Shown piece after piece: positions 6,386-15,833 of a DNA stretch of 38,322 nt (the first letter of the stretch is position 1; each line of letters starts with the position of its first letter). The notes under the pieces were generated by a model. That model did not search any database. It was not told the origin of the DNA and saw nothing but the letters and a program-made list of their open reading frames with translations. Both the position numbers and the translations under genes were made by a program. This DNA comes from Burkholderiaceae bacterium (GTDB lineage Bacteria; Pseudomonadota; Gammaproteobacteria; Burkholderiales; Burkholderiaceae_E), in assembly GCA_024711155.1 (NCBI GenBank), contig JANJTK010000117.1:1-38322 (forward strand), given 5' to 3'.

Positions 6386-8089
6386 TTACCGGGCGCTCCC
6401 CGGCGCAGCGGCCGAGTCCTCGCGGGCCTGGAGCAGTCGCCATTGCACCTTCCCCGTGCCCGACTTCGGAAGCGCATCGACGAATTCCACGAGGCGAGGC
6501 GCCTTGTAGGTCGCCATCTGCGTCCTGGCCCAATCGACGATCTCCCGCTCGGTCGGGCGTCGCCCGGACTTCGGCACGACGACGGCCTTCACGGTCTCGC
6601 CCCGATGCGCGTCTCGCGAACCGACGACGCAAACCTCCTGGATGTCCGGGTGCCGGAACATCATCGACTCGACTTCAGCCGGCCAGACCTTGAATCCGGA
6701 TGCGTTGATCATCCGCTTGAGCCGGTCGACCATGTAGAAATATCCGTCGTCGTCCATTCGTCCGAGGTCTCCGGTGCGGAACCATGCCTCGCCATCGATC
6801 TCCAGGAACGCTGCGCCAGTCGCGTCCGGATCGTTCCAGTACCCCTTGAACACTTGCGGCCCGCGCAACACGATTTCGCCGACCTGGCCGGGAGGCAACT
6901 CGGCTCCGCTGTCCGGGTCGACAACGCGAGACCGCGTGTTGAACACCGGGGTACCCAGGCACTGACGCCTTGCCGCCAGGGGCGGGTTCGAATGCGTCGG
7001 CGCGGCCGTCTCGGTCAACCCGTAACCCTCGAAGAAGCTCAAGCCGGTCAGGTCGTGGAGGCGCTCCGCGATTGCCTCGGGCATCGCCGCGCCTCCCCCG
7101 CCGATCGTGCGAAGCGAGGCCAGCGCCGCGCGGTCGGTACGCGGGGACGCGAGAAGGTCGATGAGCGTGGTCGGGATGCTGACGAAACTCGTCACGCCAT
7201 GCCGCGCAATCAGATCGAGCGCGACCTCGCGATCCCAGCGCGTCATCACCACCATCTGCGCGCCCAGGTAGATGCAGTTGTTCATGACCATCTGCATCCC
7301 GCTGACATGGAAGAAGGGCGCGACCGCCAACATGACGTCGGCCGCGCTCTGCAGGTTGAGCAGTCCGGCCTGCACGATCGTCGACATCAGGGTCCGGTGC
7401 GTGTGGATGCAGCCCTTCGGGCTGCCCGTCGTCCCGGATGTGTAGGGCAGGACGGCGAGGTCGTCCGCCGACGCGCGAGGCGGACCCGGCGCGTGCCCGG
7501 CGCCGATGGCGCGGGACCAGGACACAGCCCCGGCCACGCGATCGATCGGCTCCGTCGGCTGCGTGAGTTCGGGCGGAAGCGCCAGGTCGGTCGGCGCACC
7601 CGCATAGTCCGCATACGCGGTCGCCAGGACGGTGTCGAGCCGGCCCGGCGCGACGTGCGGTGCGACGCGGTCGAGCAACTCGCTGCCGACGATCGCGACC
7701 CGCGCACCCGAATTCTCGACGTAGTGCCGCACTTCGTCGGCCAGGTTCATCGGATTGACCGGAACGACGACCGCGTCGGCCCGAAGCACCGCATGGTAGG
7801 CGATCACGTACTGCGGGCAGTTCTGCATGAAGACCAGCACGCGCTCGCCCTGCCGCACGCGCGCTTCCGCGGACAGGTAGCCGGCGAGGGCGTCGACCTC
7901 GCGCTTCAGGTCGCCGTAGCTGAACGGCCTCCCGTAATACCAGATCGCCGTTCGCGACGGATAGCGTGCGGCCGACACGTCCAGATTGTGCGGGACCGTG
8001 GTCTCCGGAATCGGCAGCGTCCCGCGGCGATCGGGCGGCGCCCGCCCGATGTCCCGGGGTCGACTGACGTCGAGGTGCCCATTGCTCAT
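6386..8089 (-). CDS. AMP-dependent acyl-CoA synthetase/ligase
   Basis: MSNGHLDVSRPRDIGRAPPDRRGTLP...; P-loop YTSGTTGSPKGCIHTH, EGYGLTETA, WFRTGDLGRMDDDGYFYMVDRLKRMINASGFKVWPAEVE, C-terminal KSGTGKVQWR. ATGA overlap with the upstream gene. Confidence 0.92.
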   Translation of the reverse strand: MSNGHLDVSRPRDIGRAPPDRRGTLPIPETTVPHNLDVSAARYPSRTAIWYYGRPFSYGDLKREVDALAGYLSAEARVRQGERVLVFMQNCPQYVIAYHAVLRADAVVVPVNPMNLADEVRHYVENSGARVAIVGSELLDRVAPHVAPGRLDTVLATAYADYAGAPTDLALPPELTQPTEPIDRVAGAVSWSRAIGAGHAPGPPRASADDLAVLPYTSGTTGSPKGCIHTHRTLMSTIVQAGLLNLQSAADVMLAVAPFFHVSGMQMVMNNCIYLGAQMVVMTRWDREVALDLIARHGVTSFVSIPTTLIDLLASPRTDRAALASLRTIGGGGAAMPEAIAERLHDLTGLSFFEGYGLTETAAPTHSNPPLAARRQCLGTPVFNTRSRVVDPDSGAELPPGQVGEIVLRGPQVFKGYWNDPDATGAAFLEIDGEAWFRTGDLGRMDDDGYFYMVDRLKRMINASGFKVWPAEVESMMFRHPDIQEVCVVGSRDAHRGETVKAVVVPKSGRRPTEREIVDWARTQMATYKAPRLVEFVDALPKSGTGKVQWRLLQAREDSAAAPGSAR

Positions 8090-8460
8090 CCGAGCATTCC
8101 TTGTTCCCAGCGTCCAATCGCCACCACCACCAGGAGCGCGGCCGGGAGCAGCGGCTCGTGGAGACGCCGCCACTCCCGGTTCACGACGAGGGTCGCCAGG
8201 GCCACGAGCATCGCGACGCCCAGCACGACCGCCGCGAGCGAAGCCGTCTTCGGCAACAACAGGCCGGCCGATCCGAGTATCCAGAGGACCACGAGGCCGA
8301 ACGTCACCTCCGCCGGCCGCGCGTATCCCCAGTGCCTGAACTCCTCACCGACCTCGGCGAAGTCGTACACCTTGTGCCGCGCGGACTTCAGGAAGATCCA
8401 GGCGGCGCCAGCCTGGCAGGTCCACAGTGCGGCCTCGACCGCGAGCACTCGCGTACTCAT
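8086..8460 (-). CDS. Small four-helix membrane protein (DoxX-like)
   Basis: 124 aa with several hydrophobic segments (EVTFGLVVLWILGSAGLLLPKTASLAAVVLGVAMLVALATLVV). Embedded in the operon with an overlapping stop/start. Confidence 0.55.
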   Translation of the reverse strand: MSTRVLAVEAALWTCQAGAAWIFLKSARHKVYDFAEVGEEFRHWGYARPAEVTFGLVVLWILGSAGLLLPKTASLAAVVLGVAMLVALATLVVNREWRRLHEPLLPAALLVVVAIGRWEQGMLG

Positions 8461-15800: not shown

Positions 15801-15833
15801 AAGCCAGAGCACTATGAAGAAACGCACTGCCAT
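12828..15833 (-). CDS. Pyrogallol-phloroglucinol transhydroxylase alpha-subunit homologue (DMSO reductase-family molybdoenzyme) with an added N-terminal SCP2-like domain
   Basis: TNMTNGGPVFVHVDNGRIVRITPVDFDDRDAPTW..., HPMKRVDFDPAGERNPQNRGKSGYVRISWDEALDIV, SSHHTWGNIGY, NPDSWEGWFWG, FWSSDPEST, EFYFPGYADGGISGD, NQSIWFEGEAKFADVILPACTNFERWDIGE, SPHPRFSFHTLGDGKDS, VHSYESSANYDPIG, DRGGCVNVLTP: long near-identical stretches to the Pelobacter acidigallici enzyme. The first ~146 aa are extra. Confidence 0.9.
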   Translation of the reverse strand: MAVRFFIVLWLLAKALRSYSRRPPVRDLAAAHDFCAQISLKDGSAGRWFRFEKGRVTTAAGLLANPDVLIRFKSPAIGTRVLIELGAGMFHSVHAVLAPFLRPMEVVNAAKNFAFEVKGEDRLVVQFTDILSAILTFHWRHGTPMPGGGLRCTNMTNGGPVFVHVDNGRIVRITPVDFDDRDAPTWSITARGREFSPPRRSTLSPHGLASKSLVYSSSRLLHPMKRVDFDPAGERNPQNRGKSGYVRISWDEALDIVAGEIKRVRRQHGHGAILCSHSSHHTWGNIGYYLSASIRFMNAIGHTKMVLNPDSWEGWFWGAAHHFGNSMRMGSAEPYGQIEDCLRDAELIVFWSSDPESTCGSYAAFEGTVRRRWAKELGIEMIHIDPHLNATANWLGGKWIPIVPGTDAALAHAIAYTWIVEGLFDADYVEKRTTGFDAYRDYLLGTHDGTPKSPEWQAPETGVPAHVARALARSWGRKKTYLGCGGKGVTFGGANRSATGAQWARAMVCLMAMQGLGKPGINFGNLGTGTPLDMEFYFPGYADGGISGDVEFTADAVQNYQRLPHLISMNTVTQKIPRLRIPEAILDGQTEGYPSDTRSLEGQFARFAYPAAGHSRVRMMYKYGGSHFGTTMESNRLARALQSEELEFIVNQSIWFEGEAKFADVILPACTNFERWDIGEWASSGGYGHHNFNQLNHRVIVLQHKCIEPLGESRSDFRIFRDLAERLGFAAYYSEAKTELQWCREQFLSSDLPKHVSWKTFLSKGYFVVPSELKPENRTPVSWRWFAEGRKKDVPEPGPLPSEYGETYLEGLQTQSGKFEFEASSLKRFGQDPERPPVNEYIPSWEGRRTTELLKRYPLQLISPHPRFSFHTLGDGKDSVVNDIRDHRVLVDGHYYWVARLHPADASARGIDEGDLIRLFNDRGAVICVARLTERVVRGVVHSYESSANYDPIGEPGASPDRGGCVNVLTPKRHISARTSASAPNSCLIEVARWEGSERAA

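What the first reader, a model, noticed from the sequence alone, without database searches (positions are those of the whole stretch)
6386..15833. Candidate undescribed ring-transforming cassette: Mo transhydroxylase plus OCH-like C-C hydrolase plus ThDP enzyme plus reductase plus CoA ligase
Seven co-directional, tightly spaced genes combine homologues of both subunits of pyrogallol-phloroglucinol transhydroxylase with a 6-oxocamphor-hydrolase-like crotonase (known for hydrolytic retro-Claisen cleavage of cyclic beta-diketones), a ThDP enzyme of the superfamily that contains cyclohexane-1,2-dione hydrolase and IolD, a beta-hydroxyacid-dehydrogenase-like reductase and an acyl-CoA ligase. Known phloroglucinol routes use phloroglucinol reductase and dihydrophloroglucinol cyclohydrolase, and I see no clear homologue of those here. 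Inference: a polyhydroxylated ring is rearranged by the transhydroxylase, reduced to a cyclic 1,3-dione, opened by the OCH-like enzyme and activated as a CoA thioester. The order of steps and the substrate are unknown.
Basis: partly seen in the sequence, partly recalled or inferred. Interest (0 to 1): 0.88.

Follow-up and report, generated by a model that had tools for sequence, protein, structure and literature searches.

The report
Conserved molybdenum-crotonase-ThDP phenol-ring cassette
This is a compact, horizontally acquired block of seven genes that very probably lets a bacterium break down a polyhydroxylated phenol ring without oxygenases, using a relative of pyrogallol transhydroxylase together with a different set of ring-opening enzymes from the known phloroglucinol pathway.

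Summary
Seven tightly packed minus-strand genes (6386-15833) encode transhydroxylase-like alpha and beta, a ThDP enzyme, a 6-oxocamphor-hydrolase (OCH)-type crotonase with all six catalytic residues, a beta-hydroxyacid-dehydrogenase-like reductase, a DoxX-like protein and an acyl-CoA ligase. The order alpha-beta-ThDP-OCH-reductase recurs in independent alphaproteobacterial contigs at 58-74% identity (one contig ends inside OCH). All seven genes have low GC3 (0.83-0.87) against 0.91-0.99 for the other 26 window genes, so the block looks horizontally acquired. The solved Pelobacter enzyme lacks it; every full-length relative among the ~80 fetched has it. In 13 of those loci the same Mo enzyme lies beside at least three of four phloroglucinol-pathway genes. 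The window genome has no homologue of that pathway's ring-opening enzyme. So OCH plus ThDP plus reductase probably replaces that module. Substrate and step order are inferred, not shown. The CoA ligase was not seen in the other cassettes. Best reading: a new variant of polyhydroxybenzene catabolism, with OCH as the likely cyclic beta-diketone hydrolase.

The parts
12828..15833 (-). alpha subunit, transhydroxylase-like Mo-bisMGD enzyme, 1001 aa
   Evidence: 4v4c_A E=1e-295; Pfam Molybdopterin, AhtL-like_1st, Molydop_binding and no N-terminal Fe4S4 domain; active-site H280, D310, S311, W312, Y541 correspond to TH H144, D174, S175, W176, Y404 and are kept in 84-85 of 85 relatives
15411..15833 (-). 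N-terminal SCP2-fold domain of alpha (about residues 1-141), preceded by a hydrophobic or amphipathic helix
   Evidence: AlphaFold2 mean pLDDT 92; Foldseek vs PDB: UbiJ-SCP2, alkylsulfatase SCP2 domains and sterol carrier proteins, prob 1.00; weak Pfam SCP2 in 16 of 65 homologues
11947..12831 (-). beta subunit, Fe-S electron-transfer protein, 294 aa; its start overlaps the alpha stop (ATGA)
   Evidence: Pfam Fer4_11 E=1e-17; gap -4; 58-64% identity next to alpha in the closest relatives
10223..11932 (-). ThDP-dependent enzyme, 569 aa, PRK06112 subfamily
   Evidence: NF004772 887 bits, cut-off 673; 71-72% identical in the cassettes of L017-L019
9422..10207 (-). OCH/ABDH-type crotonase, predicted C-C (beta-diketone) hydrolase, 261 aa, GTG start
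   Evidence: 1o8u E=9e-77 and 2j5g E=6e-68; W45, H50, H131, H154, D163 and E253 conserved, E253 cut off by the contig end in L019
8476..9375 (-). beta-hydroxyacid-dehydrogenase/imine-reductase-superfamily NAD(P)-dependent reductase, 299 aa
   Evidence: Pfam NAD_binding_2 and NAD_binding_11; KxxxN motif kept, usual substrate motif DAPVSGG reads DAPVAGRP; 65-67% identical in L017/L018
8086..8460 (-). DoxX-like small membrane protein, 124 aa
   Evidence: Pfam DoxX_2 34 bits, cut-off 26.3; 47% identical at the same place in L018
6386..8089 (-). AMP-forming acyl-CoA ligase, 567 aa (PRK08314 subfamily)
   Evidence: NF006181 801 bits, cut-off 705; same foreign GC3 as the rest of the block; not seen in the other cassettes
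4796..6226 (-). context: methylene-THF reductase with DUF5981
   Evidence: Pfam; native GC3 0.958, so not part of the acquired block
2118..4073 (-). context: RACo-type corrinoid-protein activator
   Evidence: Pfam RACo_C_ter 221 bits
1231..2121 (-). context: pterin-binding methyltransferase
   Evidence: Pfam Pterin_bind
16084..17346 (+). context: URO-D-family protein, candidate corrinoid methyltransferase, divergent from the cassette
   Evidence: Pfam URO-D 66 bits; homologues beside alpha/beta in L041 and L059

Best explanation
The block is a mobile catabolic operon for a polyhydroxylated benzene ring. Proposed course (inferred unless marked): the Mo alpha/beta enzyme, whose transhydroxylase active-site residues are kept (shown), adds or moves ring hydroxyls so that meta-hydroxyls can tautomerise to ketones. 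The reductase makes a cyclic beta-diketone from the keto tautomer. The OCH-type crotonase, whose catalytic set is complete (shown), opens that ring by hydrolytic retro-Claisen cleavage. The ThDP enzyme makes a second C-C cleavage or transfer in the open-chain oxo-acid, and the ligase charges the product with CoA. This set replaces the SDR reductase, DPGC, HADH and BKACE module that accompanies the same Mo enzyme elsewhere. The SCP2-fold domain of alpha probably tethers a hydrophobic partner (membrane, quinone or a lipophilic phenol) to the enzyme.
For: Active-site conservation of alpha and OCH. Conserved order in L017, L018 and L019, L019 cut inside OCH; these alphas plus L020/L024 form one clade, SH-aLRT 100. 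Purifying selection on five genes. One foreign block with the operon's own edges. In 13 relatives at least three of the four phloroglucinol genes flank the same Mo enzyme, and 9 fetched relatives plus the L018 contig (L134) carry cyclases with Trp20/Tyr22, the residues reported for the characterised DPGC (PMC10470551). The sister alpha in L020 (73%) lies near BKACE, HADH, SDR and cupin genes. In the L018 genome the cassette shares a contig with BKACE, HADH and a DPGC-like cyclase. The window genome has no DPGC-like cyclase. OCH and DPGC are both retro-Claisen hydrolases (families' known chemistry; DPGC from PMC10470551). SCP2 fold.
Against: No substrate or activity is known for any member. The reductase family normally acts on small beta-hydroxy acids, not rings. 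The ThDP enzyme's nearest relatives sit in clusters without the Mo enzyme or OCH. The ligase was not seen in other cassettes. OCH-like enzymes are also found without the Mo enzyme. The L018 organism holds both this cassette and phloroglucinol-type genes, so the cassette need not be a straight replacement; its substrate may differ.
Confidence: 0.5

Rival explanations
1. Oxidative route as in anaerobic resorcinol degradation: the Mo enzyme hydroxylates the ring using an electron acceptor, the product is oxidised to a hydroxyquinone or 1,2-dione, and the ThDP enzyme (not OCH) cleaves the ring, as cyclohexane-1,2-dione hydrolase or the PDH-like 2-hydroxybenzoquinone enzyme does. OCH then splits the open-chain beta-diketone.
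For: The second copy of the Mo enzyme in the same genome (contig C45, L013) lies with a PDH-like E1, an E2 and an aldehyde oxidoreductase. L018 carries a second Mo oxidoreductase right after its cassette. The Azoarcus scheme is from established knowledge (Darley 2007, not readable here).
Against: The ThDP enzyme is an acetolactate-synthase-like single chain, far from PDH E1, and only distantly similar to cyclohexane-1,2-dione hydrolase. No quinone-forming dehydrogenase lies in the window block.
Confidence: 0.25
2. The ThDP enzyme and the reductase form a small-fragment salvage pair, like glyoxylate carboligase plus tartronate semialdehyde reductase, working after the ring is open; the reductase never touches the ring.
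For: The reductase's best curated models are sulfolactaldehyde and tartronate semialdehyde reductases; glyoxylate carboligase is among the ThDP hits.
Against: The ThDP enzyme keeps the activating Glu51 (TENAG), which from general knowledge glyoxylate carboligase lacks. The reductase's carboxylate-binding motif is altered (AGRP for SGG) and it is below every family cut-off.
Confidence: 0.15
3. The true substrate is a lipophilic phenol (alkyl- or acyl-resorcinol, terpenoid or steroid phenol), held by the SCP2 domain.
For: SCP2 fold closest to UbiJ, which binds hydrophobic quinone precursors (PMC6747719). Plasmid-borne relatives lie near OmpW or an outer-membrane transport protein and acyl-CoA synthetases.
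Against: Every full-length relative fetched has the SCP2 domain, including those beside phloroglucinol genes, where the substrate should be water-soluble.
Confidence: 0.15
4. Coincidental neighbours without a shared pathway.
For: The last gene, the ligase, was not seen in the other cassettes.
Against: Same order across bacterial classes, purifying selection and uniform foreign composition.
Confidence: 0.04

Closest known systems
Pyrogallol-phloroglucinol transhydroxylase AthL/AthS of Pelobacter acidigallici (PDB 4v4c)
   Same: Fold family, Ser-ligated Mo site, no N-terminal Fe-S domain, all active-site residues checked, paired Fe-S beta subunit
   Different: The window alpha has an extra SCP2-fold domain of about 140 residues; activity unknown
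Phloroglucinol pathway of Clostridium scatologenes (PGR, DPGC, TfD, TAL)
   Same: Logic proposed here: reduce a keto tautomer, then hydrolytic retro-Claisen ring opening; relatives of the same Mo enzyme lie beside such genes
   Different: None of the four genes is in the block; OCH-type crotonase, ThDP enzyme and a beta-hydroxyacid-dehydrogenase-like reductase stand in their place
6-oxocamphor hydrolase (Rhodococcus) and Anabaena beta-diketone hydrolase
   Same: Full-length similarity and the complete catalytic set
   Different: Known OCH acts on a camphor dione; here it is embedded in a molybdenum phenol operon
Anaerobic resorcinol/hydroxyhydroquinone route of Azoarcus anaerobius (RhLS, BtdhLS, BqdLMS)
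   Same: Mo hydroxylase of the same family followed by ThDP chemistry; the C45 copy in the same genome resembles it more
   Different: The window block has an acetolactate-synthase-like ThDP enzyme and OCH, no PDH complex
Cyclohexane-1,2-dione hydrolase (Azoarcus 22Lin)
   Same: ThDP superfamily, possible C-C hydrolase role
   Different: Only a distant hit (E=6e-41, rank about 38)

Membership tests
Pyrogallol-phloroglucinol transhydroxylase (AthLS) | Ser Mo ligand and substrate-site residues H144, D174, W176, Y404 | tested here: met
   H280, D310, S311, W312, Y541 by alignment to 4v4c; kept in 84-85 of 85 relatives, absent from the two outgroup Mo enzymes (D apart)
Pyrogallol-phloroglucinol transhydroxylase (AthLS) | Two-subunit enzyme with Fe-S beta subunit | tested here: met
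   beta overlaps alpha by 4 bp; Fer4_11
Pyrogallol-phloroglucinol transhydroxylase (AthLS) | Domain layout of the solved large subunit (875 aa, no extra N-terminal domain) | tested here: not met
   alignment starts at query residue 149; residues 1-148 include an SCP2 fold
Pyrogallol-phloroglucinol transhydroxylase (AthLS) | Hydroxyl transfer between phenols | not testable with these tools
   needs an enzyme assay
Phloroglucinol degradation pathway (C. scatologenes type) | DPGC cyclase with Trp20/Tyr22 | tested here: not met
   no hit at 1e-15 in the window genome; the window PF04199 protein 34997-35803 lacks the motif
Phloroglucinol degradation pathway (C. scatologenes type) | BKACE (TAL) and SDR (PGR) next to the Mo enzyme | tested here: not met
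   only 34-36% homologues on other contigs of the genome; none in the window loci table
6-oxocamphor hydrolase / beta-diketone hydrolase | Full-length similarity and catalytic W40, H45, H122, H145, D154, E244 (OCH numbering; residue list partly from memory, ABDH set H43, H144, D153, E243 from PMC3584854) | tested here: met
6-oxocamphor hydrolase / beta-diketone hydrolase | Hydrolytic retro-Claisen activity, independent of CoA | not testable with these tools
   needs an enzyme assay
Azoarcus resorcinol route | PDH-like 2-hydroxybenzoquinone-cleaving complex | tested here: not met
   no PDH-like E1 in the window; one is on contig C45 of the same genome
Azoarcus resorcinol route | RhL orthology of alpha | not testable with these tools
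   no RhL sequence in the tools; the paper is not held
Cyclohexane-1,2-dione hydrolase | CDH-specific active-site residues | not tested
   only superfamily similarity; ThDP model too poor to use

The most novel reading that the evidence does not exclude
A previously undescribed ring-opening route for polyhydroxybenzenes, in which an OCH-type crotonase opens a cyclic beta-diketone made from a molybdenum-transhydroxylated phenol and a PRK06112-type ThDP enzyme performs a second C-C cleavage, served by a transhydroxylase family that carries an SCP2 lipid/quinone-binding domain.
Probability: 0.35. Interest if true: 0.8.

Novelty: new variant of a known kind. Interest (0 to 1): 0.6.

Why it matters
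Few enzymes are known that open phenolic rings without oxygenases, and they govern the fate of tannins, flavonoids and lignin monomers in anoxic soils and guts. If right, retro-Claisen ring opening was recruited a second time, from crotonases instead of metal-dependent cyclases, and the Mo enzyme is a plug-in front end that combines with several downstream modules. The SCP2 domain, present on every full-length relative fetched but absent from the only solved structure, makes a testable prediction about membrane, quinone or lipid coupling for a family that reaches at least seven phyla in this sample.

Tried and rejected
ThDP structure prediction: mean pLDDT 59 with a 4-sequence alignment, so not used for a fold search. 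Papers on the Azoarcus resorcinol genes and the transhydroxylase structure are not held. Repeats at the block edges: only weak, degenerate matches, no flanking repeats of an insertion. Literature for an SCP2-molybdopterin link: none in the library. Considered and rejected: that the window's own PF04199 cyclase (34997-35803) is the missing dihydrophloroglucinol hydrolase (no Trp20/Tyr22, not hit at 1e-15); that the flanking corrinoid genes belong to the same acquired block (GC3 0.93-0.96 against 0.83-0.87); that the cassette is a general feature of the genus (no OCH above 50% identity in 8 congeners searched). Some cassette members were probably missed: genome contigs allowed one scan and the best 80 of 557 relatives were kept.
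Full report
What is there. The window is a whole contig (C28) of a 2.95-Mb, 90.5%-complete genome. On the minus strand, seven genes run from 15833 to 6386 with gaps of -4, 14, 15, 46, 15 and -4 bp: transhydroxylase-like alpha and beta, a ThDP enzyme, an OCH-type crotonase, a beta-hydroxyacid-dehydrogenase-like reductase, a DoxX-like protein and an AMP-forming acyl-CoA ligase.

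The Mo enzyme. Alpha aligns over residues 149-997 with the Pelobacter pyrogallol hydroxytransferase large subunit (E=1e-295). The Mo ligand and the substrate-site residues (TH H144, D174, S175, W176, Y404, roles recalled from the structure paper) are all present and are kept in 84-85 of 85 relatives, but mostly not in outgroup Mo enzymes. Residues 1-148 are extra. An alignment of 65 such N-termini gave a model with mean pLDDT 92, and Foldseek found UbiJ-SCP2, alkylsulfatase SCP2 domains and sterol carrier proteins at probability 1.00. Pfam SCP2 is weak but recurrent (16 of 65). UbiJ's SCP2 domain binds hydrophobic ubiquinone precursors (PMC6747719). All full-length relatives fetched carry the extension; the solved enzyme does not. 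No paper in the library links the two.

The crotonase. The nearest solved structures are 6-oxocamphor hydrolase and Anabaena beta-diketone hydrolase, 40 or more orders of magnitude ahead of enoyl-CoA hydratases. The residues matching OCH W40, H45, H122, H145, D154 and E244 are all present and conserved in the other cassettes, except that E244 falls beyond the L019 contig end. The ABDH catalytic set is confirmed from PMC3584854.

Conservation. Alpha relatives are widespread: 557 places in GTDB-species genomes, of which the best 80 were fetched. Three loci (L017, L018, L019; Paracoccaceae and Hyphomicrobiales MAGs) carry ThDP at 71-72% and OCH at 73-74% in the same order after alpha-beta; L017 and L018 also have the reductase (65-67%) and L018 the DoxX gene (47%), while L019 ends inside OCH. 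Their alphas, the window alpha and L020/L024 form one clade with SH-aLRT 100. L017-L018 dN/dS is 0.056-0.077 for all five genes. The cassette OCH is rare: none above 51% identity in 398 other genomes of the phylum sample, none at 1e-80 in 288 other genomes of the class of L018, none above 50% in 8 congeners.

Acquisition. GC3 of the seven genes is 0.827-0.868; that of the 26 other window genes is 0.912-0.987, and 0.94-0.96 for genes of the other Mo operon in this genome. If genes were independent, the chance that these seven are the seven lowest of 33 would be 1 in 4.3 million; they are linked, so this is descriptive. The block edges match the operon edges, so DoxX and the ligase came with it and the flanking corrinoid genes did not. 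In L017-L019 the cassette has no such clear offset from its surroundings.

Natural comparison. Around the same Mo enzyme in 13 other loci lie at least three of four genes of the phloroglucinol pathway families: SDR, HADH, cyclase, BKACE. Cyclases from nine of the fetched loci (L027, L034, L040, L050, L055, L056, L074, L082, L084) and from the L018 contig have the Trp20/Tyr22 pair reported for the characterised dihydrophloroglucinol cyclohydrolase (PMC10470551). The SDRs are reductases of the right family, but I did not show them to be PGR. The window's sister alpha in L020 sits near BKACE, HADH, SDR and cupin genes, and the L018 cassette shares its contig with BKACE, HADH and a DPGC-like cyclase. 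The window genome has no such cyclase. So the Mo enzyme is a shared front end for polyhydroxybenzenes, and in the window clade the downstream module is OCH, ThDP and reductase. DPGC and OCH are unrelated proteins with the same kind of chemistry.

Other modules and context. A second Mo operon in the same genome (contig C45, L013) has cupins, another reductase, an M24 hydrolase, an aldehyde oxidoreductase and PDH-like E1/E2 genes, repeated in part in L037, L039 and L044; it recalls the resorcinol route. The window block is flanked by MTHFR, a pterin-binding methyltransferase, a RACo activator and a URO-D-family protein, the parts list of corrinoid O-demethylation. Similar genes flank the Mo enzyme in an acidobacterial (L059) and, for URO-D, an actinobacterial (L041) locus. 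This suggests that methoxylated phenols may feed the pathway; I saw no corrinoid protein gene of that type in the window, and this remains inference.

Mechanism and uncertainty. Shown by sequence: complete catalytic sets of the Mo enzyme and OCH, conserved linkage, foreign origin, lack of the known ring opener. Inferred: ring substrate class (likely), OCH as ring opener (more likely than not), reductase acting on the ring (uncertain; its motif departs from the small-acid enzymes), ThDP step (uncertain), CoA ligation (specific to this genome so far).

Noticed in passing
L013 (contig C45 of the same genome) 216-12536: Second Mo-transhydroxylase-like operon: truncated alpha, beta, two cupins, reductase, M24 hydrolase, aldehyde ferredoxin oxidoreductase, fused PDH-like E1, VOC protein, E2; partly repeated in L037, L039, L044. 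Resembles the resorcinol/hydroxyhydroquinone route.
   Followed up: partly
L102 and L103 (plasmids of Burkholderia stagnalis and Ensifer canadensis): SCP2-type alpha/beta on soil-bacterial replicons beside an acyl-CoA synthetase, VOC proteins, FAH hydrolase and OmpW or an outer-membrane transport protein: possibly an aerobic-lifestyle module of the same Mo enzyme.
   Followed up: partly
L016 (G441) 2345-13473: SCP2-type alpha/beta in another genome of the same class together with MobB/MoeA-like genes, two VOC-like proteins, a luciferase-like monooxygenase and a flavin reductase (names read from sequence starts only).
   Followed up: no
L018:1085-4886 (also L134): A further Mo-enzyme pair upstream of the cassette whose alpha reads as two ORFs (frameshift, assembly error or decay).
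   Followed up: no
L011 (G072) 5202-8891: A congener's SCP2-type alpha is interrupted by in-frame stops (one TGA, one TAG) and lies beside transposase-like genes: probably a decaying copy.
   Followed up: no
L097 and L099 (Sinorhizobium meliloti and Pacificitalea plasmids): Nearest ThDP relatives outside the cassettes (64%) share a cluster with ABC transporter, FabG, shikimate-dehydrogenase-like and GMC/choline-dehydrogenase-like genes; perhaps cyclitol catabolism with a ring-cleaving ThDP step.
   Followed up: partly
L100 and L101 (Paraburkholderia megapolitana and Pseudonocardia plasmids): OCH-like genes (57%) lie directly beside PF04199-type cyclase-family genes, a second kind of candidate C-C hydrolase; in Pseudonocardia also beside a xanthine-dehydrogenase-type Mo enzyme.
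   Followed up: no
window 17404-28293: Cluster of old-yellow-enzyme-like reductase, SnoaL proteins, two enoyl-CoA hydratases, methylmalonyl-CoA-mutase-like large and small subunits, two acyl-CoA dehydrogenases and MeaB; looks like a separate acyl-CoA/mutase pathway.
   Followed up: partly
window 30082-36819 and L136: TRAP transporter, PF04199 cyclase and SGL-family gene in the window resemble a TRAP-cyclase-BKACE-SGL group in the genome of L019, another cassette bearer.
   Followed up: partly
window 4099-4776: 225-aa protein between MTHFR and the RACo gene with no Pfam match.
   Followed up: no
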